Below are positions 10,778 through 25,473 of a DNA stretch of 64,000 nucleotides, one piece after another. Made by a program: the position numbers and the translations under genes. Where the stretch lies: assembly GCF_013394595.1 (NCBI RefSeq), contig NZ_CP053348.1, positions 1,178,001-1,242,000 of the forward strand, given 5' to 3'. Source of the DNA: Winogradskyella forsetii (GTDB lineage: Bacteria > Bacteroidota > Bacteroidia > Flavobacteriales > Flavobacteriaceae). Positions within the stretch are counted from its first letter, which is position 1. Each line of letters opens with the position of its first letter. Under the pieces are notes generated by a model. The model was not told where the DNA came from and searched no databases. It worked only from the letters and a program-made list of their open reading frames with translations.

Positions 10778-10974
10778 GAAAAACAAACATTTAAGTTTAA
10801 AGTTCACCAACGCGTTTACTCTAGTTATTTCCATCACCTAACTATCACTCAGTTGCAAATTCGTGGTTCGTGCTTTGGTTTTTGTAAGCTCGGATAAGTA
10901 GCGTAATTAAGATGTAAATTAACATGATAGAACAGTTTTGATTAAAGAAAGGAGCGTTATTTAGTTTTTGAAGT

Positions 10975-11046: not shown

Positions 11047-11051
11047 CAAGA

Positions 11052-11059
11052 CAAACATA
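11052..11059 (-). promoter_or_regulatory. Bacteroidota -7 promoter box TATGTTTG (candidate sRNA promoter)
   Basis: Exact match to TAnnTTTG on the minus strand, about 32 bp downstream of the GGACA pair at 11092-11109. No clear -33 TTG was found at the usual spacing. Confidence 0.35.
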
Positions 11060-11091: not shown

Positions 11092-11109
11092 ACGGACAAT
11101 AAGTGGACA
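11092..11109. promoter_or_regulatory. GGACA tandem site A
   Basis: ACGGACA-ATAA-GTGGACA: two GGACA units with an 11-bp period, about one helical turn. One of five such sites in this locus. Confidence 0.6.
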
Positions 11110-11124
11110 AGCTTAAGTATCTCT

Positions 11125-11142
11125 ATGGACAATCAGTGGACT
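11125..11142. promoter_or_regulatory. GGACA tandem site B
   Basis: ATGGACA-ATCA-GTGGACT, period 11 bp, 33 bp (three helical turns) after site A and in the same orientation, so sites A and B lie on one face of the DNA. Confidence 0.6.
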
Positions 11143-11162
11143 ATATTTATTAAATAGCTGAT

Positions 11163-12911
11163 TTATAGATCTATAACTAATTCTTGTAATGAGTCCTCTG
11201 TGGTTAGATTGAGTTTTTTACGTAAACGATAGCGCGCTTTTTTAACACCTTCTACAGAAATATTGAGAATATTGGCAATTTCTTTACTCGAAAGATTCAT
11301 TTTTAAAAGTGACATGAGACGTAGATCATTATTGCTTACTTCTGGATAATTACGCATGACCTTAGAATTGAAATCTTTATGCACATCTTCAAAATAGGTT
11401 CTGAATTGTTCCCAATTATTGTCGTTATTAATATCAAGATTAATAGTATTGATGACCTTTTGGTAACTTCTTGAATTAGGATTAGAGGCTTTAAGTTCTT
11501 TTAATTGTGATTTTAAATCGAGCAGAACTTCATTTTTATGTGCCAAATGTAACGCATGTGTTGTGAGTTCTTTTTCTTTAAATTCTAGATCGTTATCTAG
11601 TTTTTCGCGTTCTATTTTATTGCGTTTCATTTTTTGACGTAATCCGTAAACGAGAGCAATAGCCAATGCAATGGAACCTATAAGTGAGATAATAAGAAAC
11701 AATTTTTCATTTTCAGCTTTTTGTTTTCGTTCATTTAAAAGTTTGATTTCATTTGCTTTGATAATGAGTTCGTTCTCTTTTTTTTCGGTTTGGTATTGAA
11801 CCTCTAATTCGTTCATGCGTTCAATATTTTCCTCACCTAAGATTTCATCATGAAGCTCGTGGTAGTCGGTGTGATATTCGTAAGCCTTTTTGTAACGCCC
11901 TAAACCTGCATAAGCTTTAGACATTTCCAATAAGTCACCAATCATTTTTTTACGAGTACCAGTTTCTTCTGCGTTTTCTAAAGCACCTTTCATATAGCGC
12001 AACGCTTTTCTGTAATCTCCTTTTTTATTGTAAAGTTCACCAAGATGACGTAAGTTCAACCCAATAAGGGAAGTTTCTCCATATTGCTCGCTAATCGCCA
12101 ATGATTTTTTATAATAATCTTCTGCAAGTTCTAGACTGTCTTGTTGGGCATAAATCCAACCGATATTATCATAGGCTCCAGCCAGATCGTTATTAAAGTT
12201 TTGTGCTTTGTAATAGGGTACTTCTGCTAACATCATTGCTTTTGCTAACTCATACTCTTTCTGACCTTTTAAATTAATGGCCATGTTCATATTGATGCTA
12301 GATATTTCGTCAATTAGATTTAGTTTTTCATAGATAACTTTTGCCTTCTTATAGTAATTATTTGAAATGTCATAATTGCCAATATCACCTTGTATGTTTC
12401 CTATATTCCAATAGCTTGCCGCAAGACTTTCTTCTGTGTCACCAACGTCTTCTTTGAGTTTTAAACTTTTCATGTGGACTTCCAAACATTCGTTGAACCT
12501 GCCTAAATTTCGCAATGCAATAGCTTTATTGTTTAGGGCAGCGCATACTTGTACCATATCGTTGAGTTCAGTGTAACTGCTTATAACTTTGTCAAAGACT
12601 GGTAAGGATTCTTCGTATTGGGAAGTCATATTATAGTAGTCACCCAAATAATTAGTGGTTCTGGCAATAAAATTTTTGTTGTTTAATCGCTTTGCTAAAA
12701 AAATGGTACTATCCAAATAAGGTTTTGACGCCAAAGGATCTACATATAGATATTCTGCCCATAACATTGCATAAGTAATAATCTGGGTAGTATCGGTTTG
12801 TTTTGTTACAACATTTAGAAGACTGTCAACCCGTTTTTGATCTTGACTATGGCCAAAGTATGAACTCAACATAGCACTTAAAAAAATTAGATAAATCAAT
12901 TTGTCCACCAT
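11163..12911 (-). CDS. TPR-transmembrane-LuxR transcriptional regulator (paralogue 1)
   Basis: I choose ATG 12911, which gives a proper signal peptide (MVDKLIYLIFLSAMLSSYFGHSQ); an in-frame ATG at 12974 would add 21 residues in front of it. Tetratricopeptide repeats follow over about 350 residues ('AAYWNIGNIQGDIGNYDISNNYYKK', 'AGAYDNIGWIYAQQDSLE' are parts of typical units). Then come a coiled coil, one hydrophobic helix ('LFLIISLIGSIALAIALVYG'), a second coiled coil, and a C-terminal LuxR-type helix-turn-helix ('NLSSKEIANILNIS', 'VKKARYRLRKKLNL'). The order implies TPRs outside the inner membrane and the DNA-binding domain inside: a one-component transmembrane regulator. It is divergent from the surface block starting at 13203 and probably controls it. 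Paralogue of 23507-25390. Confidence 0.85.
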   Translation of the reverse strand: MVDKLIYLIFLSAMLSSYFGHSQDQKRVDSLLNVVTKQTDTTQIITYAMLWAEYLYVDPLASKPYLDSTIFLAKRLNNKNFIARTTNYLGDYYNMTSQYEESLPVFDKVISSYTELNDMVQVCAALNNKAIALRNLGRFNECLEVHMKSLKLKEDVGDTEESLAASYWNIGNIQGDIGNYDISNNYYKKAKVIYEKLNLIDEISSINMNMAINLKGQKEYELAKAMMLAEVPYYKAQNFNNDLAGAYDNIGWIYAQQDSLELAEDYYKKSLAISEQYGETSLIGLNLRHLGELYNKKGDYRKALRYMKGALENAEETGTRKKMIGDLLEMSKAYAGLGRYKKAYEYHTDYHELHDEILGEENIERMNELEVQYQTEKKENELIIKANEIKLLNERKQKAENEKLFLIISLIGSIALAIALVYGLRQKMKRNKIEREKLDNDLEFKEKELTTHALHLAHKNEVLLDLKSQLKELKASNPNSRSYQKVINTINLDINNDNNWEQFRTYFEDVHKDFNSKVMRNYPEVSNNDLRLMSLLKMNLSSKEIANILNISVEGVKKARYRLRKKLNLTTEDSLQELVIDL

Positions 12912-13121
12912 TTGGTAGACAGATGTAACGGATTCAAAAAAACGGACATAAATCGACAAATAGGAGATGCTCATGACTTTTGATTGTTAGTTGATCTAAT
13001 ATAATATTATTTATTTTTTAAGTATAAAACACTGTTAATCAATTTAATGTAAAAACATAATTGGGTCTTGTCTACCTCATATAAATATCTTCAAAATTTT
13101 AAAATATTGGTTTTTTTAGTG

Positions 13122-13139
13122 GTGGACAAAAGGTGGACA
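13122..13139. promoter_or_regulatory. GGACA tandem site C
   Basis: GTGGACA-AAAG-GTGGACA, the most perfect copy, period 11 bp. It lies between the divergent regulator (start 12911) and barrel gene (start 13203), 63 bp before the latter; a weak -7 box TAAATTGC follows about 36 bp downstream. Confidence 0.65.
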
Positions 13140-13202
13140 GGCCAGTTTTTATGGAAAACGAGATGCTTTTTTGTCTAAATTGCTTCAACAAATACTGGTT
13201 AA

Positions 13203-13850
13203 ATGCTTAAGAATTATACAATTGCCGCAGTTATTTTATTGACGGGTTTGTCATCTTTTGGCCAACAGCTCTACTTCGAATTTGGTACAACGCTGTCTTC
13301 TTTTAATTATGAAAATTCTCAAGGAAGACCAATTGATAATTTATTATCTCAATCAAAATCTTACTACGGTATGGGTTATAGGCAACCTATTAACAGTAAC
13401 AGAACCTTATTTCTTTCAATTGGTGCATCCTACACTAATTATGGAGCTATTGGTAGCGAACCTAGTATAGATAACTATTTTGAATGGGACTTAAGTCATA
13501 TAGGTGCAAAAGCAGGCTTGGGACTAAAGTTGTTTCAACTCAGAGATCTCACATTTTTAGCCAATTTGTCTATGGCTTCAGAATTTTTAATACGAGGAAC
13601 ACAAACTATAAACAATGATGTATATAACCTTGTTGGAGAAAAGGAATTTAATAACAACATATTTTTCTTGAGGGGTGGACTTGAAATGCAGTATCCAATT
13701 TCAAGAAGTACTGCCATTTTTGCTGGTTATACCTACGGAAAATCTTTACTAATTAGTAGTGGTGAGATTAGTGAAAAGTTAACCTTTAATGCCCATCATT
13801 TTGGTTTAGGTTTCATTATTAATTTACCTAGATGCTACTGTAGTTATTAG
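13203..13850 (+). CDS. Outer-membrane beta-barrel protein
   Basis: A 215-residue protein with signal peptide (MLKNYTIAAVILLTGLSSFGQ). The mature part is a chain of alternating amphipathic strands ('RTLFLSIGASYTNYG', 'FFLRGGLEMQYPISR', 'STAIFAGYTYGKSLL'), ending 'FNAHHFGLGFIINLPRCYC', which fits an eight-stranded OmpW/PorT-like barrel. Unlike most, it ends in a Cys-Tyr-Cys motif rather than an aromatic terminal residue. It is the first gene of the surface block and lies between GGACA sites C and D. The exact family is uncertain. Confidence 0.7.
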   Translation: MLKNYTIAAVILLTGLSSFGQQLYFEFGTTLSSFNYENSQGRPIDNLLSQSKSYYGMGYRQPINSNRTLFLSIGASYTNYGAIGSEPSIDNYFEWDLSHIGAKAGLGLKLFQLRDLTFLANLSMASEFLIRGTQTINNDVYNLVGEKEFNNNIFFLRGGLEMQYPISRSTAIFAGYTYGKSLLISSGEISEKLTFNAHHFGLGFIINLPRCYCSY

Positions 13851-13865
13851 AAAATTTGGGTTCAA

Positions 13866-13883
13866 GTGGACAAATGGTGGACA
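13866..13883. promoter_or_regulatory. GGACA tandem site D
   Basis: GTGGACA-AATG-GTGGACA, period 11 bp, 75 bp upstream of the T9SS protein at 13958. A possible -7 box TAGTTTTA follows about 29 bp downstream. The same orientation and distance as site C. Confidence 0.65.
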
Positions 13884-13957
13884 ATTAAAATAACGTAATA
13901 ATTAATCAAGATTTAGTTTTAAGTTTAGAACTACATCCAACTAAATAAGACCATAAA

Positions 13958-14470
13958 ATGAAGAAAAATCTATACACATTGATGTTACTCTGTTTTGCAC
14001 AGGTTTTGCAAGCTCAGGATAATTCGGAATATCGCATAATCAGATCCAATTTAGGAAGTAGTGGTTCTTCTCACAACGTTACAACCACCAAAGGTACCTA
14101 TAAAATTAGTCAAAGCGTTGGGCAAGCCAGCGTCATTGGTACGCATTATAATCGTGGCTATTATTTAAGACAAGGTTATCAGCAACCTTCAACTAAGATA
14201 AAAGCAAAACCTAAAGATTCCGATGACAGCTTAAGTGCCAAAGTGCATCCAAATCCTTTTAGCCAATTCATAATTGTAAGGTTTAGTGAGACCATGATAA
14301 ACGATATCTCAGTTATGATGTTTGATGTTAATGCCAGAATAATACATACTCAAGAATTCTTAGCAGCACAATCAATTGAACTCAGATTAAGGGACATTGC
14401 TAGTGGTAACTATTTTTTGAAAGTTATATCCGGAAATAAATACTATCAGACAAAACTTATTAAAATTTAA
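13958..14470 (+). CDS. Small T9SS type A sorting-domain protein
   Basis: A 170-residue secreted protein: signal peptide MKKNLYTLMLLCFAQVLQAQ, a central part with 'TYKISQSVGQASVIGTHY' and 'GYYLRQGYQQP' that recurs in Bacteroidota surface proteins encoded before tail-fibre-like genes, and a C-terminal sorting domain from about residue 90 ('VHPNPFSQFIIVRF' to 'GNYFLKVISGNKYYQTKLI'). The sorting domain sends it through the type IX system to the cell surface. It is followed after 2 bp, or 32 bp to the preferred start, by the 14503 gene, so the two form an operon led by GGACA site D. Confidence 0.85.
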   Translation: MKKNLYTLMLLCFAQVLQAQDNSEYRIIRSNLGSSGSSHNVTTTKGTYKISQSVGQASVIGTHYNRGYYLRQGYQQPSTKIKAKPKDSDDSLSAKVHPNPFSQFIIVRFSETMINDISVMMFDVNARIIHTQEFLAAQSIELRLRDIASGNYFLKVISGNKYYQTKLIKI

Positions 14471-14502
14471 AAATGAAACCAATAATTATAAAATCAAAAA
14501 TC

Positions 14503-16716
14503 ATGAAGAGAATCCTAACCTTAATAGTCTTTGCTTGTTTTATATCTCAAATCCAGGGGCAAACTGATGGTATTTCTTATCAGGCCGTAATTGTTTCACC
14601 AGATGCTTTGGAATTACCAGGAGTAGATTCTGAAGGCAATTACTTGCCAAGCACTACAATCGCTGTTCGATTTACCATTTACGATGAGAACAATCAACTG
14701 GAATTTCAGGAAGTACAAATTACAGATACAGATGAATTTGGGCGTATCAACCTTCTAATCGGTGACGGCAATCACGATTATTTCAAAGAAATGAATTGGG
14801 ATGGCACAGCAAAAGATTTAAAAGTGGAAATCGATTTCGAGGCAGGAAATGATTTTACATTTATGAGCAGGGAAAGACTCACATTTTTACCTTTTGCATA
14901 TCACAGAAATATTACCGCAACTGGAACTTTAACGGTTGATGATAGAACGTTTTTAAATGGTGAACTGGAAGTTGAAGGACCAACCACGTTAGAAAGCACA
15001 TTGGATGTTATCAACGGAAATGCCACCAATCTTACTGGAAGTTTAACAGTATTAGGTGAAACAAATCTCAATAACACCTTGAGCGTTTTGGGTCTGAATC
15101 CTACCTATTTGACTGGTAATTTAACAGTTGATGGCAGTAGTACCTTGAACGGTACTTTGGATGTTATGCAAGGCACGACTTTAAATGCAACCTTGGATGT
15201 TATTGGGGACACTACGTTAAGTGACCTAACAGTAAATGGTGAGGCAAGTTTTGGGGATTTAAATGCAACTAATTTAACTGTTTCAGAAAGCAGCGTCTTA
15301 AATGGAGATGTATTAATAGAACTAGAAGGTCAAAAAAATATAAGAATGGTAGCGGAAGGAATCGATGATGGATCTGTTAATAGTAAATTTAGATCCGCCG
15401 TGCTTATTGATGCAAATCAGTTTGGATTGGCAATTGAGGTGGATGGTAGTAGAAGCAATAGCACAAATTTTATTACATTTTATGATGAAACTAGAGTATC
15501 GCCTTGGGGAAGAATAGAAGGAGAGCGTATAAATGAATTTACCAACAATGACGATTATAATTTTGATTTAACAACCTTAGAATACGATTCTTATGATGCA
15601 ATTTTTGATACTGGAGTGGCTGCCTATGAGTTTGCTAAATCTTTAGGTACCATAGGAATTGCGTCTACATCATCTACGGGTTGCGTAGGTTTTGGTGCTT
15701 GTGTTACGGCACCAATTCCTTCTTGGATCATTGGTAGTACTGCACAATCTATAGTTGCGGGTCTTCAAATTATAGTGGCTGCTGTCGGTGTCGGTATTAC
15801 GCAGTCTAACCTCAATCATTACCAGGATTATAAAGCCTTATTGGAAGGGGTGACCTACGCTTCCGGATCTGGAGATTATGCTGAATATTTGCTCAGGGAA
15901 AACGTTAACGAAAAAATGGTCTATGGCGATATTGTAGGTGTAAAAGGCGGAAAAGTCTCTAAAAACCTCACAGGTGCTGATAAAATGATGGTGGTATCCT
16001 ACAAACCAATAGTTTTAGGAAACATGCCACAACCTAACCGTGAAGCTGAGTACGAAAAGGTAGCTTTTATGGGACAAGTACCAGTTAAGGTTTATGGCAA
16101 AGTTAATATTGGAGATTATATTATACCAAGTGGTAAAAACGATGGTGTTGGTATGGCCATTAAACCAGAATATATCAAGGCAAACCAGCTAAAACAGATT
16201 GTAGGTGTCGCTTGGTCAAGTAATGAACAGTCTAATAGTTTCAATTTAATCAATACAGCTGTTGGTGTCAATAAAAATGATAGCAGTTTTATTATTGAAC
16301 AACTAGAAACTAAAGTAGAAACACAAGCTGAAGAAATTACTTACCTCAAAAATCAAATTCAAACAATTTTATCGAAAATAAATGCTATTGAAAATGGTGT
16401 TTCAGGTAACCAAGTGGCTTTAAATGCTAATGCGAAGGAAAAAGAAAGCCATTCAGAATATGAGATCATAGAATCTACGGAAACAGATGTGATCTATCAT
16501 AAAATAACAAGGGACGATTTTGAAAAGGGATTGCTTTTAGCAGAGGAGATGATTTTAAATTCCAATAAAAACGGCGAAAACGAAAAATTGGTAGAAGCTT
16601 TAAATAAGTTAAAAACAGATGGTGCTTTTAAGACTAAATTTTTTAACGAACTTCAAGAAGGATTAAGCAAACAAATTCATTTCCATCAAGAAATTGATAA
16701 AAAAGGAAGACACTAA
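14503..16716 (+). CDS. Tail-fibre-like surface protein with IMC/peptidase G2-like domain and coiled coil
   Basis: ATG 14503 gives a clean signal peptide (MKRILTLIVFACFISQIQGQ); an in-frame ATG at 14473 would add ten residues. After an N-terminal domain (to about 140) come short beta repeats rich in 'LTVDGSSTLNGTLDV'-type units (about 140-270), typical of trimeric beta-helical fibres. A hydrophobic Gly/Ala/Ser segment follows, then 'GSGDYAEYLLRE', 'YGDIVGVKGGKVSKN' and 'MMVVSYKPIVLGNMPQPN', which recall the intramolecular-chaperone/peptidase G2 domain of phage appendages and related bacterial fibres. A trimerising coiled coil ('IEQLETKVETQAEEITYLKN') lies near 590-630. I infer a trimeric surface fibre. 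No T9SS domain is visible, so it may act in the periplasm or with partners. Confidence 0.7.
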   Translation: MKRILTLIVFACFISQIQGQTDGISYQAVIVSPDALELPGVDSEGNYLPSTTIAVRFTIYDENNQLEFQEVQITDTDEFGRINLLIGDGNHDYFKEMNWDGTAKDLKVEIDFEAGNDFTFMSRERLTFLPFAYHRNITATGTLTVDDRTFLNGELEVEGPTTLESTLDVINGNATNLTGSLTVLGETNLNNTLSVLGLNPTYLTGNLTVDGSSTLNGTLDVMQGTTLNATLDVIGDTTLSDLTVNGEASFGDLNATNLTVSESSVLNGDVLIELEGQKNIRMVAEGIDDGSVNSKFRSAVLIDANQFGLAIEVDGSRSNSTNFITFYDETRVSPWGRIEGERINEFTNNDDYNFDLTTLEYDSYDAIFDTGVAAYEFAKSLGTIGIASTSSTGCVGFGACVTAPIPSWIIGSTAQSIVAGLQIIVAAVGVGITQSNLNHYQDYKALLEGVTYASGSGDYAEYLLRENVNEKMVYGDIVGVKGGKVSKNLTGADKMMVVSYKPIVLGNMPQPNREAEYEKVAFMGQVPVKVYGKVNIGDYIIPSGKNDGVGMAIKPEYIKANQLKQIVGVAWSSNEQSNSFNLINTAVGVNKNDSSFIIEQLETKVETQAEEITYLKNQIQTILSKINAIENGVSGNQVALNANAKEKESHSEYEIIESTETDVIYHKITRDDFEKGLLLAEEMILNSNKNGENEKLVEALNKLKTDGAFKTKFFNELQEGLSKQIHFHQEIDKKGRH

Positions 16717-16750
16717 AAGCCAATGTTCAATAGTTAGAAACTTAAAGTCG

Positions 16751-19700
16751 ATGACCAATAAAGTTTTATTTTCAGTAGTATTATTTCTGTTTTCAATTCA
16801 CTTCTTGGAAGCCCAGACCACAGCAATTCCAGATGCTAATTTCGAAAACTATTTAGAAACACATTCAGCCGATGGTGCAATAGTTGCTCTTGGTGATGCC
16901 AATAGTATGGGAGATGGTATTGCCAACAACAATTTGGTATTAACGGCAAGTATTAGCGAAGTGTTGCTTTTAGATATTAGTGGCTTGGGTATTTCAAATC
17001 TTTCGGGAATTCAGGATTTTGCAGCGCTCAACAACCTGTTCTGTAGTGACAATAACTTGGAATCCTTGGATATTTCCAACATTTCCAATTTGGTGTCTTT
17101 GCTTTGTGGTTCCAACAGTCTCGCAGATTTAGATGTTAGTAGTAATAGCAATTTAGAAACATTGAATTTTGCGGATAACCAAATACAAAATATTGATCTT
17201 TCAAATAATACAGCTTTAAAAAGTTTAACAGCTTCAGGTAATCAACTGCTGCTTATCGATGTTTCCAATAATATGGAACTATCTTCATTAAGTGTTTCAA
17301 ACAATAGGATAGAAGGTGAATTAGATGTTAGTAATAATTCCAATTTAGAGAGCCTGTACTGTGCTTCAAACCAAATTTCTACGTTAAATCTGTCAGCAAA
17401 TCCATTATTGAAAAATCTTGACGCTTCTGGTAATGCTTTAACTGATTTAGATTTATCAGTTATGAATTCTGTAGTCTGTCCGGATCCACAAACAGATCCT
17501 GTTACGGTATGTCAAGGCCTGTCAACCATAAATGTATCGAATAATTTGTTGAATGCATTAGTCGTTACAAACGGCTACAACAACTTAGTCTCATTTTTTA
17601 ATGCCTCTGACAATCCAGATTTATTCTGTATTCAAATTGATAACGGTTTTACACCTTCGGGATGGATTAAGGATGATTGGACCTATTTCAGCGAGAATAC
17701 CTGCGAAGATATTTACACCTATATACCAGACGATAATTTCGAGCAAGCTTTGATTAACGATGGGCATGACGATATTTTAGATAATCTGGTTTTAACTGAA
17801 AATATAGATGCGCTCACAAGTTTGGATGTTTCAAATGAATCCATTTCCAGCTTAGTGGGAATTGAAGATTTTTCAGCTTTGGAGATTTTAGATTGTAGTA
17901 CAAATTCCATAGAGAGTTTAGACTTATCAAATAACACAGAACTCATCCAAATAGACGTTACAAATAACAATTTAACAACTTTGGACTTAAGCACAAATAC
18001 AGCGTTTACGACACTATATTGTGCAAGTAATATGATTGAACATCTGGATTTAAGCACAAATTTAGCGCTGACTACAATCAATTGTTCCAATAACAACTTA
18101 ACCAATTTGGATGTCAGTACGATTTCGTTACTAAGTAATTTTGATTGTTCGTTCAACCAAATAGAAAGTTTGAATCTTGTCAGTAATACCGCATTGGTGA
18201 GTGTATTGTGCAACGATAATAACTTGTTTGCTTTAAATATTAACAACGGAAACAATACTACAATTACCACGTTCAATGCCACAAATAATAACAATCTGTT
18301 CTGTATTCAAGTTGATGATGAGACTTATCCGGATATTGCAGGTTGGCAAAAAGATTTGGGAGCATCTTACAATGTTGCTTGTGGTACTTATATTCCTGAT
18401 GATAATTTTGAACAAGAATTAATTGATGTAGGAATTGATTCTGACGGCACATTAAACAACTTTGTGGCAACGACAGATATTAATACTTTAATAGCACTGG
18501 ATATTTCAAATCTCGCCATAGCTGATTTAACCGGAATCCAAGATTTTGAGGATTTAATAGACTTGAATATTTCATATAATGAATTAACAAACATAGACTT
18601 AAGCAATAATACAGACTTAGAAATTTTAGATTGCTCAAACAATGAAATCACGGATTTAGACCTTACCTTAAATACCGCTTTAACCTCATTGTTATGCAAC
18701 GACAACAGCTTCTTAACCCTGAATATTGAAAATGGAAACAATGGCGCACTGACAACGTTTAATGCTACAAATAATTCCAATTTATATTGTATAAATGTGG
18801 ATGACGCTATTGTTGGGAATATTCTTGGGACTTGGCAAAAAGATGATTTTGCAGCCTATAATGGCGATTGTGTATCGAACCGTGTGACGGCAATTCCAGA
18901 TGGGTTTTTTGAACAAAGTTTAATTGATTTTGGCTATGATGATGTTTTGGATGGCGAAGTAAAGACTGCAAACATTGAACATATCCAGAATTTGGATGTT
19001 AGTGACAAGAGTATTTCTGACTTAACAGGAATTCAAGATTTTAGGTCATTGGTTGAATTGGATTGTAGTGGTAATTTCCTGAATACATTGGATGTGAGCG
19101 ATATGTTGTTTTTAGAACGTTTGAATTGTAGTTCAAATTATCTACTCACAAATGATACCAACGATATAGACGGTTTATTCAATACAACAGGAACTATAAG
19201 TTTGAAAGCCTTGTATTGCGCTGGTAACAATTTGAATAATTTAGATACATCCCAAAACACCAATCTCGAAATATTGGATTGTGCGGATAATAATATTTCA
19301 GACCTTAATATCAATAACAATGCATTGCTAAGAGTTTTATATACTTCTAATAATGATTTGACCATTTTAGATTTAAGCAGCAATACAGCTTTGGAAGATG
19401 TGAATTGCGATAGTAATCAAATTAGCAATTTAACAACTATAGGAACAATAAATACCACGCTAATCAATCTAAGCTGTGCCAATAACGATATCATAAATTT
19501 ATCTGTAAATAATTATCAAGCATTGGAAGTTTTAAATGTGTCGTCAAATGAATTAACCCAGCTCAATGTTGATAATAATGCCGAACTTGTCTTTTTATCA
19601 ATTACCAATAATCAAATATCGGAAATATCGCTTTTAAACAATGGCAATTTAGTTGAGGTCTTGGCATCTCAAAACAGTTTGCAAACACTCGACCTATCTG

Positions 19701-22420
19701 CGAATGCGCTTTTAGAATTTTTGAACTGTGATTTTAATGAACTAACGGCTCTAAATTTAGTTTCAAATCCATCACTCGAGTCATTATCCTGTTCAAACAA
19801 TCAACTGACGGAACTGGATTTACTCAACAATGGAAATTTGATTGCAGCTGATTTTAGTTCGAATATGATATCGAGCGTCATCTTGCCGAATAATTTGGAG
19901 TTTTTAAAACGACTGGATGCCAGCAACAACCAAATTGAAAACGATTTGGATTTAACTGCTGTGGCGATTTCGGCCTGCGTTTTTCAACCGAATCAAATAG
20001 AATTTTGCCCAGAAAACATTTCCATTAATGTGTCTAACAATCTATTGAGTTTTGTTAACATTCAAAATGGAATCAATACAGAAATAGCAAGTTTTAACGC
20101 CTCTGGAAATCCAAATTTGGAATGTATTCAGGTTGATGATGCAGATAATGTCAATGTGAGTTGGATTAAAGATGAAGCCACAACGTTTAGCGAAGATTGC
20201 AATTTTGGAGAAACTTATGTGCCAGACGATAATTTTGAGCAAGCACTCATCGATTTAGGCTACGATTCTGGGCCTTTAAACGATTATGTCTTAACTGCCA
20301 ACATAGTTAACGTTGTTAGTCTGGAAGTCAACGGGAATACGATTGCAGACCTCACAGGCATTGAAGATTTTGCTGCTTTACAAACTTTGAATTGCTCTAA
20401 CAATGCTATAATTGAATTGGATTTAAGCTCAAATTCAAATTTATTGGAAGTCGATTGTTCAGATAATTTATTGACCGATTTAGACCTAACAACTAACATC
20501 GCTTTGATGACGCTTAATTGTGCTTTTAATTCAATCAGCACTTTAGATTTAACGGCTAACGCGAATCTTTCAGACTTAAATATGTCATATAATACATTGA
20601 CGTCGTTTTTACCTAGTGACGTTTTGTCCCTACAGGTTTTCAATTGTGACAACAATTCAATTGTAACTCTCGATTTTCAACAAAATCAGAATTTAACAAG
20701 TATAAGCTGCGAATCAAATCTATTGGAAACACTCAATATTAAAAACGGTCAAAACACACTTTTAACGAATTTGAATGCCATTAACAATCCTAATTTATTA
20801 TGTATTGAAACTGATAATGGCACAGTCCCAAATGGTGCCACTTGGGACATAGATGCCACAGCACAATTTGCCATAAACTGCTTTTTTGGAGAAACCTATG
20901 TGCCAGATGATAATTTTGAGCAAGCTTTAATCGACTTAGGATATGATTCAGGGCCTTTAAACGATTATGTTTTTACCGAAAATATTGAAGACGTAGAGTT
21001 CTTAAATATCAGTAATAGAGAAATTTCAGACTTAATCGGTATAGAAGATTTTATCAGTTTAACGCAATTAAATATTGAAGGGAATACTATCGCTGCAATT
21101 GATTTAAGTAACAACCTTCAATTGGTCAATCTCAATGCTTCCAATAATTTACTTGCGGAAATTGATGTGACGTTTCTTTTGAATTTAACGGATTTAGATA
21201 TGTCCAATAATGCATTGACCGCAATAAATTTAGATTCAAATTTAAGTTTGTTGGATGTAGATGTGTCCACTAATTTAATAACGGAATTAAATGTCGATGG
21301 ATTATTGAATTTAGAAGATTTGAATTGTTCGTCTAATCAATTGAGTAGTTTGAGTGTTGTTCAGAATACCAACTTAAAAACCTTGTTTTGCCAATCCAAT
21401 TTGTTAATTGGAGACCAGCTCAATATTCAGAATGGAAACAATGAAAATATATTCATATTCAATGCCACCGACAATCCAGATTTGGGATGTATTTTGGTTG
21501 ATAATCCATTAGCAGTAGTTGAAAACCTTGATGGTTTTTATGATAGCTGGTTTAAAGACAATTCCGCAAGTTACCAAACCATTTGCGACGATGCTGATAA
21601 TGATGGTGTGCCAAACACAGATGACCTATGTCCAAATACCGAATTTGGTGCTGCTGTGGATTTGTTTGGATGCGCCATACCAGATTTGCAAAATGACAAC
21701 TTCACGGTTTTAATCACAGGGGAAACTTGCTTAAACAGTAATAACGGTAAAATTACCATAACGGCTCAAGAAATTTATAATTATACCGCGACACTAATCG
21801 GCCAGGATATTCTTGACGGCACAGGAGAGGTTTTTTATCAAGAATACAACTTCACGAATGATGTTGATATTTTCAATCTTTTGGCTGACACGTATGAAAT
21901 GTGCGTTACCATCGAAGAATGGCCAGATTACCAAAGTTGTTATACCATAGTAATTACCGAACCGAATCCACTAAGTGTTTTTGCGAGCCGACCTGCTTCA
22001 GGTAGTGATGTAACCTTAGATATGTCTGGCAGTACCATCTATTATATTCAGTTAAATGATGATACTTATACAACCCATAATTCAACATTTACACTTCAAC
22101 TTCAACAGGGTGTAAATCAGTTGAAGGTCAGTACAGATTTAGATTGTCAAGGGGTTTTTGAAGAGCAAATTATGAAAGCAGATGAACCGCTGCTGTTTCC
22201 TAACCCTTTTAAAAATGAATTGAACATCTACGATGGAAACGTAGGAGATGAGGTCACAGTAAAAATGTATTCCACGTTTGGCCAGTTAGTTTTGACCAAA
22301 ACATTTATAAATCAAGGTGTTTACAATGCAATTGATACAGAACATTTAGCCACTGGTATGTATCTTATGTCTATACAGACCAAAAGCGAGACATCAACTT
22401 TTAAAATTGTAAAAAAATGA
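16751..22420 (+). CDS. Giant leucine-rich-repeat surface protein with T9SS sorting domain
   Basis: An in-frame ATG at 16694 overlaps the previous gene; ATG 16751 directly begins the signal peptide (MTNKVLFSVVLFLFSIHFLEAQ), giving 1,889 residues. The body has six modules, each opening with a capping motif of the type 'YIPDDNFEQALIDLGYD' (near 16825, 17718, 18388, 18889, 20215 and 20900) followed by LRRs of the form L-x-L-x-C-S-x-N-x-L-x-x-L-D-L-S-x-N. The repeats are internalin-like, with one Cys ladder per unit. After the last module come a calcium-binding type-3 thrombospondin-like unit ('DDADNDGVPNTDDLCPNT'), a further beta domain, and a T9SS sorting domain ('LFPNPFKNELNIYDG' to 'STFKIVKK'). 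Likely a surface adhesin or binding protein. It overlaps the next gene by 4 bp. Confidence 0.92.
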   Translation: MTNKVLFSVVLFLFSIHFLEAQTTAIPDANFENYLETHSADGAIVALGDANSMGDGIANNNLVLTASISEVLLLDISGLGISNLSGIQDFAALNNLFCSDNNLESLDISNISNLVSLLCGSNSLADLDVSSNSNLETLNFADNQIQNIDLSNNTALKSLTASGNQLLLIDVSNNMELSSLSVSNNRIEGELDVSNNSNLESLYCASNQISTLNLSANPLLKNLDASGNALTDLDLSVMNSVVCPDPQTDPVTVCQGLSTINVSNNLLNALVVTNGYNNLVSFFNASDNPDLFCIQIDNGFTPSGWIKDDWTYFSENTCEDIYTYIPDDNFEQALINDGHDDILDNLVLTENIDALTSLDVSNESISSLVGIEDFSALEILDCSTNSIESLDLSNNTELIQIDVTNNNLTTLDLSTNTAFTTLYCASNMIEHLDLSTNLALTTINCSNNNLTNLDVSTISLLSNFDCSFNQIESLNLVSNTALVSVLCNDNNLFALNINNGNNTTITTFNATNNNNLFCIQVDDETYPDIAGWQKDLGASYNVACGTYIPDDNFEQELIDVGIDSDGTLNNFVATTDINTLIALDISNLAIADLTGIQDFEDLIDLNISYNELTNIDLSNNTDLEILDCSNNEITDLDLTLNTALTSLLCNDNSFLTLNIENGNNGALTTFNATNNSNLYCINVDDAIVGNILGTWQKDDFAAYNGDCVSNRVTAIPDGFFEQSLIDFGYDDVLDGEVKTANIEHIQNLDVSDKSISDLTGIQDFRSLVELDCSGNFLNTLDVSDMLFLERLNCSSNYLLTNDTNDIDGLFNTTGTISLKALYCAGNNLNNLDTSQNTNLEILDCADNNISDLNINNNALLRVLYTSNNDLTILDLSSNTALEDVNCDSNQISNLTTIGTINTTLINLSCANNDIINLSVNNYQALEVLNVSSNELTQLNVDNNAELVFLSITNNQISEISLLNNGNLVEVLASQNSLQTLDLSANALLEFLNCDFNELTALNLVSNPSLESLSCSNNQLTELDLLNNGNLIAADFSSNMISSVILPNNLEFLKRLDASNNQIENDLDLTAVAISACVFQPNQIEFCPENISINVSNNLLSFVNIQNGINTEIASFNASGNPNLECIQVDDADNVNVSWIKDEATTFSEDCNFGETYVPDDNFEQALIDLGYDSGPLNDYVLTANIVNVVSLEVNGNTIADLTGIEDFAALQTLNCSNNAIIELDLSSNSNLLEVDCSDNLLTDLDLTTNIALMTLNCAFNSISTLDLTANANLSDLNMSYNTLTSFLPSDVLSLQVFNCDNNSIVTLDFQQNQNLTSISCESNLLETLNIKNGQNTLLTNLNAINNPNLLCIETDNGTVPNGATWDIDATAQFAINCFFGETYVPDDNFEQALIDLGYDSGPLNDYVFTENIEDVEFLNISNREISDLIGIEDFISLTQLNIEGNTIAAIDLSNNLQLVNLNASNNLLAEIDVTFLLNLTDLDMSNNALTAINLDSNLSLLDVDVSTNLITELNVDGLLNLEDLNCSSNQLSSLSVVQNTNLKTLFCQSNLLIGDQLNIQNGNNENIFIFNATDNPDLGCILVDNPLAVVENLDGFYDSWFKDNSASYQTICDDADNDGVPNTDDLCPNTEFGAAVDLFGCAIPDLQNDNFTVLITGETCLNSNNGKITITAQEIYNYTATLIGQDILDGTGEVFYQEYNFTNDVDIFNLLADTYEMCVTIEEWPDYQSCYTIVITEPNPLSVFASRPASGSDVTLDMSGSTIYYIQLNDDTYTTHNSTFTLQLQQGVNQLKVSTDLDCQGVFEEQIMKADEPLLFPNPFKNELNIYDGNVGDEVTVKMYSTFGQLVLTKTFINQGVYNAIDTEHLATGMYLMSIQTKSETSTFKIVKK

Positions 22421-23115
22421 AAAAAGTAATTACCATATTATGCGCTGTAGTTGTTTTGTTCGGATGCAGTAATACAACCGATGATGGTTTCAATAACATA
22501 AACGGCCCACAAGATGCGCCAACTGGAGTAACATTGGTTTTTCCTTCCGATGACACGCTATGTAATGAAGGAACAAACTTAACACCAACGGAAAGTACCG
22601 TTTATTTTGAATGGCAGCCCAATGATAATGCAGGAACTTATACATTGAGCATAGAAAACTTGTCTACAGGAACTATCGAACAGTATGACACCTTAGATTT
22701 TATATTTCCTGTAACCATAGAGCGAGCGGAAGCTTATAGATGGTTTGTAAACTATGAATTACAAGGAGAAATTAAAGAAAGTGCTATCTGGAATTTTTAT
22801 AACGCTGGTCCAGGCGTACAGACGTATGCACCTTTTCCTGCAGAGATAATTTCACCAAGTATGGCGCAGACATTAAATTCAACAACTTCTGTAACCTTGG
22901 AATGGAGTGGAAGCGATGTTGATAACGACATTGTGGGTTATGATGTTTATTTCGGTGCTGATCTTCAGTCTAGTATAAATACAAGTGATGTTTCGGTTAA
23001 TCAATTTACGGTTTCAGTTGCTTCGGGTACTATTTATTATTGGAATATTATAACGAAGGATGCTAAAGGAAATACATCGGAATCTGGTGTGCATCAATTT
23101 AGTGTATTGGACTAA
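22417..23115 (+). CDS. Fibronectin-III/Ig-like lipoprotein
   Basis: A 232-residue lipoprotein (MKKVITILCAVVVLFGCS, Cys17). Two beta-sandwich stretches are visible: about 35-125 ('VYFEWQPNDNAGTYTLSIEN') and about 138-230 ('VTLEWSGSDVDNDIVGYDVYFG', 'GTIYYWNIITKDAKGN'), both with fibronectin III character. The ATG overlaps the LRR gene's stop (ATGA), so translation of the two is coupled, which suggests that they work together at the outer membrane, perhaps with this lipoprotein anchoring or presenting the LRR protein. It is the last gene of the block. Confidence 0.75.
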   Translation: MKKVITILCAVVVLFGCSNTTDDGFNNINGPQDAPTGVTLVFPSDDTLCNEGTNLTPTESTVYFEWQPNDNAGTYTLSIENLSTGTIEQYDTLDFIFPVTIERAEAYRWFVNYELQGEIKESAIWNFYNAGPGVQTYAPFPAEIISPSMAQTLNSTTSVTLEWSGSDVDNDIVGYDVYFGADLQSSINTSDVSVNQFTVSVASGTIYYWNIITKDAKGNTSESGVHQFSVLD

Positions 23116-23201
23116 ATTAGCATAATTGTCCTGTTTTTGTGCACTTATCAATATAAAATAAAGTGATTGGTCGTTAGGAAAAATTAAAACATGAGTTTTT
23201 T

Positions 23202-23377
23202 GCCACGAATGCACGAATTTTACTTCGTAAAGGGGTGACTATACTGCTATGGACTGAAAGTCCAAGTGTTTTTGAAACAGACTTTTAGTCTGTTTCATTT
23301 GTGAAATAGATAGTCAAAAATTTACTGCGCTACTTAAAAGAACGAATGAATTCGTGATAATTTGTGAGATTCGTGGC
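23202..23377. repeat. Dispersed inverted-repeat element (CCACGAAT / ATTCGTGG arms)
   Basis: The arms GCCACGAAT and ATTCGTGGC are 158 bp apart. Related copies of ATTCGTGG or CCACGAAT occur at 10859, 23443 and 30166, all in non-coding DNA, so this is a genome repeat family. Confidence 0.65.
23274..23296. terminator. Hairpin between convergent genes
   Basis: Perfect 9-bp stem GAAACAGAC/GTCTGTTTC with a TTTTA loop, between converging transcripts. It lacks a long T tract, so termination is uncertain. Confidence 0.4.
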
Positions 23378-23506
23378 GAAATTTTTAGAGTTTAAGCGAA
23401 AGCAATAACTACTCAATAATGCATCAGAATTATTTAGTTACCACGAATTCTTTTCCCTTTGGGAAATTGCAATAATAAAACACTTTCGATTTTTATCGCG
23501 CTCATC

Positions 23507-25390
23507 TTAAAGCGTTAAAATAAATTCCTGTAAAGAATCTTCAGTAGATAAGTCGAGTTTCTTGCGAAGTCTGTATCGCGCTTTTTTAATCCCATCGTTT
23601 GAAATGTTCAAAATATTGGCGATTTCCTTTGAAGATAAATTCATTTTTAAAAGGGACATCAAGCGCAAATCATTTGAGGTGATTTTAGGAAATTGTTCTT
23701 GTGCTTTTGCATTAAACCCCTTATGCACGTCTTCAAAATATTTGCTGAAATTTTCCCAATTGTTATCATCCTTTAAATCAAAATTAATAGTTTGTATGAG
23801 CGTTTGGTAACCTCGATCTGCTTTGGCTTCCTTTTTAAATACCTTGGCTTTTTGTTTAATATCGTTAAGAACTTCGTTCTTTTTGGCGAGATGCAAGGCG
23901 TGTGTTGTAAGTTCTTTGGTTTTGAATTCCAGTTCGGCTTCAGCCTTTTCCTTGTCTAATTTGTTGCGTTTGTTTTTTTGATAAAATGCGTAAAAAGCAA
24001 TTAAAGCCAAAACCAATCCAAAAGCTAAAAGTAAGCGCTGTAGGTTATTAACCTTACCTTTAATATTCAAAAGCTCAATTTCATTTTTTTGAAGCTGTAT
24101 TTGTTGTTCTTTTTTTTCGGTTTCATAAATCGTTTTTAATTCTTCAATTTGTTGCGTTTTTTTATTTGAAAATATGCTATCCTTGATTTTATGTGATGCT
24201 TTCAAATAATTATTAGCCTCTTCGTGTTCGTTCAGCGTTTCCAGAATTTCAGAACGATACTTATATAAACTTTGTAAATGAGGCAACGCGCCACTTTCTT
24301 TAGTGAGTGCTATGGCTTGATTGTTTTTAATTAAGGCTGCCGATAAATTATTAGTTTGGTAATCAACCTTTGATAAACCATCATAAGCACCAGCCAAGCT
24401 TAATTGTAAATTTTCTTCTTCAGCCAAGGTTTTGGCAGTTAACAAAAGTCCTTCTGCCTTTGCGAAGTTGCCGTCAATTATTTCTAGTTCTGCTAAATTG
24501 TTCATCACATTAGAAAGTGACAACTTATCTTCAACCGCTTCAGAGTTTGTAATTGCCATATTAAATGCTATCCTCGCGTTTTCGTAATCCTTCAAATTTT
24601 GATAGGAAATGCCTAAGGAATTATAAGCGTAGGCCAAATACATTTTTTCGTCTAATTTTTTATAGATTTCAATAGCTTGCTCATAATATGAAATAGAGTT
24701 ATCATGATTTTCCAGTCCTGATTCAATGTCTCCAATTTGTTTGATGACATCTGCTTTTCTGGATTCATGATTTATTTTTTCAAAACATTTTAAAGCTTTC
24801 AAAGCCTCAATCAATGCAATTCTATAATGTCCTTTTTCGATATATCTATTGGCAAGCGCATTGTGTTGTGCGCCAATGAACTTTGTCTTTAAATCGCCTT
24901 CTTCTTCATGATCTTCAATTAAGTTTAAGGTTTCTTTGGTAATGGCAATGGCTTCATCTAGGTTTCCAGTAGATTCTTTGATACTCGCTAAGGAGTGGTT
25001 TATAAAAATCAGGCCTCTGGTGCTATTAATGTCTTTGAAATACGCCTTGGCCTTGTTAAAATAGTACAGCGCAGAATCATTTTCATTCCTATTGCCATAA
25101 TAATCACCAATATGCATATTCCCAGTTGCGATGCCTTTTTTGAAACCTATTTTTTTCGAAATTTCCAGTTCTTTTAAAGCGTAGGTTTTGGCTTCCTCTG
25201 GTTTTGAAAACATAAGTTTTTCATGAAGCTTAGTTAAAATTTTGACCTTTATGGAATCGTCTGCAGTCCTGTTTTTAAGTTCAAGTTTTAAACTGTCAAT
25301 AAGTTTTGTGTTTTGCGCGTTTAGGGCCATTGAAAAAATCAAAATTAAAATTAGTCCTAAGTGTTTCTTATTGTTGAAATTAGAATTCAT
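23507..25390 (-). CDS. TPR-transmembrane-LuxR transcriptional regulator (paralogue 2)
   Basis: A 627-residue protein with the same plan as 11163-12911: signal peptide ('KKHLGLILILIFSMALNAQ'), TPRs over about residues 30-410 ('AYNSLGISYQNLKDYENAR', 'SLAGAYDGLSKVDYQTNNLS'), one membrane helix ('LLLAFGLVLALIAFYAFYQ'), coiled coil, and LuxR-type helix-turn-helix at the C-terminus. The last 110 residues are almost the same as in paralogue 1 ('SNDLRLMSLLKMNLSSKEIA', 'DGIKKARYRLRKKLDLSTED'), while the TPR parts have diverged: the two probably read similar DNA but sense different signals. GGACA site E lies 65 bp upstream of its start. A -7 like box TATATTTA is at 25423-25416. Confidence 0.87.
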   Translation of the reverse strand: MNSNFNNKKHLGLILILIFSMALNAQNTKLIDSLKLELKNRTADDSIKVKILTKLHEKLMFSKPEEAKTYALKELEISKKIGFKKGIATGNMHIGDYYGNRNENDSALYYFNKAKAYFKDINSTRGLIFINHSLASIKESTGNLDEAIAITKETLNLIEDHEEEGDLKTKFIGAQHNALANRYIEKGHYRIALIEALKALKCFEKINHESRKADVIKQIGDIESGLENHDNSISYYEQAIEIYKKLDEKMYLAYAYNSLGISYQNLKDYENARIAFNMAITNSEAVEDKLSLSNVMNNLAELEIIDGNFAKAEGLLLTAKTLAEEENLQLSLAGAYDGLSKVDYQTNNLSAALIKNNQAIALTKESGALPHLQSLYKYRSEILETLNEHEEANNYLKASHKIKDSIFSNKKTQQIEELKTIYETEKKEQQIQLQKNEIELLNIKGKVNNLQRLLLAFGLVLALIAFYAFYQKNKRNKLDKEKAEAELEFKTKELTTHALHLAKKNEVLNDIKQKAKVFKKEAKADRGYQTLIQTINFDLKDDNNWENFSKYFEDVHKGFNAKAQEQFPKITSNDLRLMSLLKMNLSSKEIANILNISNDGIKKARYRLRKKLDLSTEDSLQEFILTL

Positions 25391-25455
25391 TATGATAAAA
25401 CTTTAGTTGATGATATAAATATAAGAATTTCGGCAAAGGGTTCAGAATTTAGGTG

Positions 25456-25473
25456 CCGGACAAAAGGCGGACA
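25456..25473. promoter_or_regulatory. GGACA tandem site E
   Basis: CCGGACA-AAAG-GCGGACA, period 11 bp, in the gap between the second regulator (start 25390) and guaA (start 25580). It could mean autoregulation of the regulator. Confidence 0.6.

What the first reader, a model, noticed from the sequence alone, without database searches (positions are those of the whole stretch)
11092..25473. Five tandem GGACA sites with exact 11-bp spacing mark one locus
At 11092, 11125, 13122, 13866 and 25456 the sequence YGGACA-N4-(G)YGGAC(A) occurs with the two units always 11 bp apart. The first base pairs of each unit vary (GT, GC, AC, AT, CC) while GGAC is constant, as expected of a real protein site. All five are in non-coding gaps around the two TPR-LuxR genes and their surface genes; I noticed no other copy in 64 kb. 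One helical turn between units suggests a protein binding two half-sites as direct repeats on one DNA face. I propose that it is the operator of the TPR-LuxR paralogues, which share nearly the same DNA-binding domain.
Basis: partly seen in the sequence, partly recalled or inferred. Interest (0 to 1): 0.85.

Follow-up and report, generated by a model that had tools for sequence, protein, structure and literature searches.

The report
Family-wide operator for TPR-LuxR regulators
The five short repeats are very probably the DNA switch read by a family of membrane-spanning bacterial regulators; the same switch sits before surface lipoprotein genes (often pore-forming-toxin relatives) across many genera of the family, frequently followed by a structured RNA leader that is in no RNA library searched.

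Summary
Observation confirmed. GGACA-N6-GGAC occurs five times in the window (0.17 expected). Of six exact GGACA-N6-GGACA copies in the 4.5 Mb genome, four lie here and the other two inside long open reading frames.

Read on the other strand, the site is TGTCCAY-N4-TGTCCAY ending exactly 32 bp before a flavobacterial -7 box (TAnnTTTG). In 400 genomes of the family, 63 of 82 composite hits have that single gap. TPR-LuxR genes flank 58 of 62 of these, and none of 16 hits with other gaps. A recognition-helix residue (Tyr582 of regulator A) tracks the operator: Y with TGTCC/TGTCT, Gln with TGTAC (11/11), Asn with TGTCA (4/4).

All five window sites are explained. One is divergent (LuxR A and an outer-membrane gene), one serves a T9SS-cargo gene, one LuxR B, and a tandem pair a previously unseen leader RNA. 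That RNA has strong covariation, no Rfam match, and occurs in 33 of 237 genera sampled. Elsewhere the operator drives lipoproteins; 32 of 57 are Thiol_cytolysin (CDC-like) homologues.

DNA binding, activation, the sensed signal and the leader's role are inferred.

The parts
11125..11142 (-). distal operator of the tandem pair, 33 bp from the proximal one
   Evidence: tandem pair present in most related loci of the genus
11092..11109 (-). proximal operator (TGTCCACTTATTGTCCGT) of the leader-RNA promoter
   Evidence: -7 box exactly 32 bp downstream
11052..11059 (-). -7 box TATGTTTG of the leader promoter (TSS inferred at 11047)
   Evidence: consensus TAnnTTTG at -12 to -5 from PMC9723704
10956..11048 (-). 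structured leader RNA (three helices, conserved loop GGCUGCAGAC)
   Evidence: CM match 106 bits (the window sequence was in the model), covariation, no Rfam match
10845..10925 (-). 26-codon ORF after the leader (MLIYILITLLIRAYKNQSTNHEFATE), in the place where relatives carry a lipoprotein gene
   Evidence: similar ORF in G033 and G004; coding status not tested
11163..12974 (-). TPR-LuxR regulator A: N-terminal signal/anchor, TPR domain about 63-379, TM about 422-441, LuxR-type HTH 548-602, Tyr582 in the recognition helix
   Evidence: TM and signal read from the sequence
13069..13075 (-). extra conserved half-site GTRGACA near the inferred LuxR A start site, possibly autorepression
   Evidence: conserved in LuxR A-bearing loci of the genus
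13082..13089 (-). -7-like box GATATTTA of the LuxR A promoter, 32 bp from the operator
   Evidence: GAnnTTTA or near it in 14 of 15 loci; lost in L085, which has no LuxR there
13122..13139 (.). divergent operator between LuxR A and the OMP gene
   Evidence: 64 bp before the OMP start in most relatives
13176..13183 (+). -7 box TAAATTGC of the OMP promoter, 36 bp from the GGACA-side edge
   Evidence: same register in nearly all 15 loci
13203..13850 (+). 215-aa outer-membrane beta-barrel-like protein
   Evidence: PF13505 weak, below cut-off
13866..13883 (+). operator before the T9SS-cargo gene
13920..13927 (+). -7 box TAAGTTTA of that promoter, 36 bp from the operator edge
   Evidence: same register in 7 of 8 loci, 1 bp off in the eighth
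13958..14470 (+). Por_Secre_tail (T9SS cargo) protein, first gene of the surface cluster
   Evidence: PF18962
14473..23115 (+). surface genes 14473-16716, 16694-22420 and 22417-23115, probably the same operon
   Evidence: abutting or overlapping ORFs; operon inferred
25456..25473 (-). operator of the LuxR B promoter (TGTCCGCCTTTTGTCCGG)
25416..25423 (-). -7 box TATATTTA of LuxR B, 32 bp from the operator
   Evidence: conserved in G033
23507..25390 (-). TPR-LuxR regulator B
   Evidence: its recognition helix also has Tyr at the 582 position

Best explanation
The sites are operators of membrane-spanning TPR-LuxR one-component regulators. The TPR domain faces the periplasm and senses an unknown envelope cue; the cytoplasmic LuxR/NarL-type HTH binds, probably as a dimer, two 11-bp units in direct repeat (22 bp, centred near -55) and activates a sigma-A promoter. 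The ancestral cassette is [TPR-LuxR]-[operator]-[-7 box]-[structured leader RNA]-[surface lipoprotein]. In this genome the same operator also serves the regulators themselves and an OMP/T9SS surface cluster. Shown by sequence: the sites, fixed spacing, adjacency, leader covariation and residue-operator covariation. Inferred: physical binding, activation rather than repression, the signal, and the leader acting as a translational switch.
For: Site is real and locus-specific. Site-to-start distance fixed at about 64 bp before the OMP gene across the genus. Operator to -7 gap of exactly 32 bp in 63 of 82 family-wide hits. TPR-LuxR adjacent in 58/62 versus 0/16 controls. Independent RNA-first search: TPR-LuxR at 25/28 and an 11-bp direct repeat in the same register. 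Residue 582: Y for TGTCC/TGTCT, Q for 11/11 TGTAC, N for 4/4 TGTCA, with 3 concordant changes on the DBD tree and 11 on the sensor tree. In G054, which has the OMP operator but no LuxR beside it, the LuxR-side -7 box is missing while the OMP-side one stays.
Against: No binding, footprint or expression data. On the tree of the DNA-binding domain itself the specificity switches only about three times, so part of the residue-operator concordance is inheritance of one linked block. Four of 62 operator hits have no strong TPR-LuxR neighbour. GerE scores just below Pfam's cut-off, and direct repeats are less usual for LuxR-type HTHs than inverted ones.
Confidence: 0.86

Rival explanations
1. A different regulator, such as a PhoB/OmpR-type or LytTR response regulator (families known for 10-12 bp direct repeats), binds the sites, and the TPR-LuxR genes are merely co-located or are its targets.
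For: GGACA-N6-GGACA resembles the 11-bp direct-repeat layout of PhoB boxes (own knowledge); the sites lie beside the LuxR genes, as targets would.
Against: Operator half-sites change together with residue 582 of the adjacent TPR-LuxR; adjacency holds over dozens of genera from both the operator side and the RNA side; paralogues within one locus carry different matched operators (L215, L232). I did not scan neighbours systematically for other regulators.
Confidence: 0.07
2. The TPR-LuxR proteins bind the sites but mainly repress, and the envelope signal relieves repression.
For: A conserved extra half-site lies near the inferred LuxR A start site (13069-13075).
Against: The main operators span about -66 to -45 at the same distance from every -7 box, a typical activator position that does not overlap the promoter core.
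Confidence: 0.15
3. The leader RNA is only a stable 5' untranslated structure (mRNA protection), or in this genome acts as a small RNA, rather than a cis switch.
For: The inferred transcript begins at the first base of hairpin 1; in the window the leader is followed only by a 26-codon ORF.
Against: In most loci it precedes a lipoprotein start codon and carries a second ACCACAAAAC strand there, which competes for GUUUUGUGGU; folding gives both states appreciable weight in several loci.
Confidence: 0.4
4. Chance, or a mobile/recombination repeat.
For: Short degenerate motif.
Against: Expected 0.17 per window; one-gap enrichment with binomial p about 1e-76; upstream of promoters in a conserved register.
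Confidence: 0.01

Closest known systems
LuxR/NarL (GerE) C-terminal HTH regulators such as NarL, DosR, VraR, LiaR
   Same: Predicted HTH superposes on DosR, VraR, LiaR and NarL DNA-binding domains; weak profile hits to 3clo, DevR and NarL. By my alignment residue 582 corresponds to NarL Lys192, a base-contacting residue (own knowledge).
   Different: TPR sensor and membrane anchor instead of a receiver domain; 11-bp direct repeat rather than an inverted repeat.
PhoB/OmpR direct-repeat boxes (TGTCA-N6-TGTCA)
   Same: Two half-sites 11 bp apart in direct repeat just upstream of the promoter core (own knowledge of PhoB boxes).
   Different: The linked protein is not a winged helix; unrelated HTH family.
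CDC-like (CDCL) antibacterial pore-forming proteins of Bacteroidota (PMC11169675, PMC7527733)
   Same: 32 of 57 lipoproteins behind the operator match Thiol_cytolysin PF01289.
   Different: A word search of those two papers found no mention of LuxR or TPR regulators; the window itself has no such gene next to its sites.
RRNPP peptide sensors (Rap, NprR)
   Same: TPR sensor domain; Rap and NprR are among the fold matches.
   Different: Those are cytoplasmic; here the TPR is predicted to be periplasmic. Eukaryotic TPR proteins score higher, so this is only a TPR resemblance.

Membership tests
LuxR/NarL (GerE) HTH transcription factors | LuxR-type all-helical HTH fold | tested here: met
   AlphaFold model pLDDT 93; best PDB matches are LuxR/NarL-type domains, rmsd 1.2-1.8 over about 60 residues for several, though Foldseek E-values are only 0.01-0.3
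LuxR/NarL (GerE) HTH transcription factors | Pfam GerE gathering score | tested here: inconclusive
   21.1 bits against a cut-off of 23.5 for A
LuxR/NarL (GerE) HTH transcription factors | sequence-specific DNA binding by the recognition helix | tested here: inconclusive
   residue 582 covaries with operator bases; binding itself not testable here
OmpR/PhoB winged-helix regulators | winged HTH domain in the linked regulator | tested here: not met
   predicted DBD is all-helical with no wing strands
OmpR/PhoB winged-helix regulators | direct repeat with 11-bp period | tested here: met
   a likeness of the site only
Flavobacterial sigma-A promoters | TAnnTTTG -7 box at -12 to -5 | tested here: met
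   box found at fixed distance; start sites not mapped
Known Rfam RNA families | covariance-model match | tested here: not met
   no relevant match even at permissive E-values
Riboswitch / cis-regulatory leader | conserved covarying structure in 5' leaders | tested here: met
   16 of 25 pairs with changes on both sides, 0/500 shuffles; alignment was fitted to the structure
Riboswitch / cis-regulatory leader | ligand binding and switching | not testable with these tools
   only two competing predicted pairings

The most novel reading that the evidence does not exclude
A widespread and apparently undescribed control system for surface lipoproteins and CDC-like toxins. Envelope-spanning TPR-LuxR sensors read 11-bp direct-repeat operators through a simple residue-582 code (Y, Q or N for TGTCY, TGTAC or TGTCA). 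A new riboswitch-like leader RNA adds a second layer of control on the same transcripts, and DBD-plus-operator blocks are shuffled between sensors.
Probability: 0.45. Interest if true: 0.87.

Novelty: new variant of a known kind. Interest (0 to 1): 0.75.

Why it matters
It gives a testable operator, promoter geometry and specificity code for a large uncharacterised regulator family, and it links those regulators to surface T9SS genes and to CDC-like pore-forming lipoproteins whose control appears undescribed in the papers I could search. It also adds a structured RNA family, absent from Rfam 15 by my searches, in their leaders.

Tried and rejected
RNAalifold on the first broad alignment (A2) gave no structure because MAFFT misaligned the 3' strand; solved by a model built on a well-aligned subset and realignment. 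The first pairing of operators with regulators missed the TGTAC class because the search string demanded YRL; redone with blastp. A first guess that the tandem sites drove an antisense transcript into LuxR A was dropped when the leader RNA and its -7 box appeared on the opposite side. The idea of a free small RNA was dropped for most loci because a start codon follows directly. Rfam gave only unrelated weak hits. Literature searches for a TPR-LuxR operator found nothing, but only open-access papers are held. The 11-change concordance on the sensor tree was discounted after the DBD tree showed only three changes.
Full report
Check of the observation. The five copies exist exactly where reported, with none elsewhere in the window, and chance gives 0.17. 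Across the single-contig 4.51 Mb genome there are six exact GGACA-N6-GGACA copies, four of them here; the two others fall inside long open frames. The genome has only two strong members of this TPR-LuxR family (next best E about 1e-28), and both are in this locus.

Conservation in the genus. In 60 genomes of the genus the consensus GTGGACAAAAGGTGGACA recurs in pairs about 744 bp apart, around the 215-aa OMP gene. Genomes with a close TPR-LuxR (E below 1e-50) have the motif in the same locus or on the same stretch of contig in the cases I read. The site lies 64 bp before the OMP start in most relatives. A second orthologous group of TPR-LuxR (38-40% identity in the HTH region) has ATGGACAAAGTATGGACA about 218 bp before its own start.

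Promoter geometry. Read on the opposite strand, the operator is TGTCCAY-N4-TGTCCAY and a -7 box TAnnTTTG starts exactly 32 bp downstream. Where the gene lies on the GGACA side, a -7 box starts 36 bp away. Both positions are 43 bp from the centre of a 22-bp operator made of two 11-bp units. The flavobacterial -7 box TAnnTTTG sits at -12 to -5 (PMC9723704), so the operator would span about -66 to -45. Site by site: 11092 (with 11125 upstream) faces TATGTTTG for the leader RNA. 13122 is divergent, facing GATATTTA for LuxR A and TAAATTGC for the OMP gene. 13866 faces TAAGTTTA for the T9SS-cargo gene, and 25456 faces TATATTTA for LuxR B. In G054, which keeps the OMP operator but has no LuxR beside it, the LuxR-side box is lost and the OMP-side box remains.

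Family-wide test from the operator. I searched 400 genomes (237 genera) for TGTCC-N6-TGTCC followed at any gap from 20 to 50 by TANNTTTG. Of 82 hits, 63 have one gap and about 19 are spread over the other 30 gaps (p about 1e-76). Among 62 fetched loci with that gap, 58 carry a TPR-LuxR paralogue and nearly all a lipoprotein gene directly downstream; of 16 loci with other gaps, none carries such a paralogue (Fisher p 3e-13). Some of the other-gap loci have different LuxR-type regulators immediately upstream, so the half-site may be used more widely.

The leader RNA. Upstream alignment showed a strongly conserved element beside the tandem sites, on the strand reading away from LuxR A. It begins at the inferred start site and precedes the start codon of a lipoprotein or a small ORF. 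A covariance model found 45 members at E up to 1e-4 in the fetched loci and none among the other-gap control loci. Of 25 pairs, 16 show changes on both sides; the covariation score is 0.36 against 0.193 +/- 0.009 in shuffles and 0.03-0.08 in slid controls (the alignment was fitted to this structure). There was no relevant Rfam match. In the family it occurs in 36 of 400 genomes and 33 genera. Its GUUUUGUGGU strand can pair either with a proximal CACAAAAC or with an ACCACAAAAC just before the start codon; folding puts loci on both sides of that balance. A translational switch is therefore plausible but unproven.

Family-wide test from the RNA. Twenty-eight RNAs that were mostly not found through the exact operator were examined. 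Twenty-five lie beside a TPR-LuxR. In 27 of them aligned at the predicted operator position, the first 7-bp block is 88% identical to the block 11 bp on, against 12-42% for other lags. Often both half-sites carry the same variant: TGTAC, TGTCA or TGTCT.

Specificity code. Aligning the recognition helix of the adjacent regulators, residue 582 (numbering of A) is Tyr in 30/30 TGTCC and 7/7 TGTCT cases, Gln in 11/11 TGTAC and Asn in 4/4 TGTCA. On a tree of the part outside the HTH the operator class changes 11 times, always with residue 582 (8 supported independent pairs, p 0.008). On a tree of the HTH region with that residue masked there are only three changes, including at least two for TGTAC. 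I read this as a few true switches plus exchange of an HTH-and-operator block between sensors: the HTH end of the gene lies only about 50 bp from the operator. The link between regulator and operator holds either way, but the independent evidence is about three events, not eleven.

The proteins. A is predicted to have an N-terminal signal or anchor, a TPR domain (about 63-379), one long helix through a membrane segment, and a C-terminal HTH (mean pLDDT 83). The HTH modelled alone matches LuxR/NarL-type domains. Elsewhere in the family 32 of 57 lipoproteins behind the operator are Thiol_cytolysin homologues, the CDC-like family reported as antibacterial in Bacteroidota (PMC11169675). Next to the window's operators there is no such gene; the sites serve an OMP and a T9SS-type surface cluster, and the leader is followed by a 26-codon ORF.

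Verdict. It is a new variant of a known kind (LuxR-type regulation) with an unusual direct-repeat operator, a matched specificity residue and an RNA leader that I could not assign to any known family.

Noticed in passing
L202:4557-4600, also L199, L201, L203, L212: Other LuxR-like regulators (286-535 aa) lie directly upstream of TGTCC direct repeats; L202 has four units at 11-bp spacing before a sulfatase-like gene.
   Followed up: no
L078, L079, L081, L083, L067, L072 (ORFs after the leader RNA): Short hydrophobic ORFs of about 23-25 codons (such as MGLLLLYKIYCLIIKGKRKPALIKK), possible membrane microproteins, follow the leader in several relatives.
   Followed up: partly
window 16694-22420: 1908-aa ORF (TTG start) with internal repeats of about 63 and 670 bp, LRR-like; a large surface protein in the regulated cluster.
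   Followed up: no
L225, L232, L239 upstream of the leader RNA: A distinct operator-like sequence AGTATAC-catt-TGTCTCC with unequal halves recurs in three genomes at the operator position.
   Followed up: no
window 13176-13183: The OMP -7 box TAAATTGC fits the TAnnTTGY (SM5) motif described in Flavobacterium psychrophilum (PMC9723704), so another sigma factor might serve this promoter.
   Followed up: no
sensor tree versus HTH tree: Operator class changes 11 times on the sensor tree but 3 times on the HTH tree, suggesting swapping of HTH-plus-operator blocks between sensors.
   Followed up: partly
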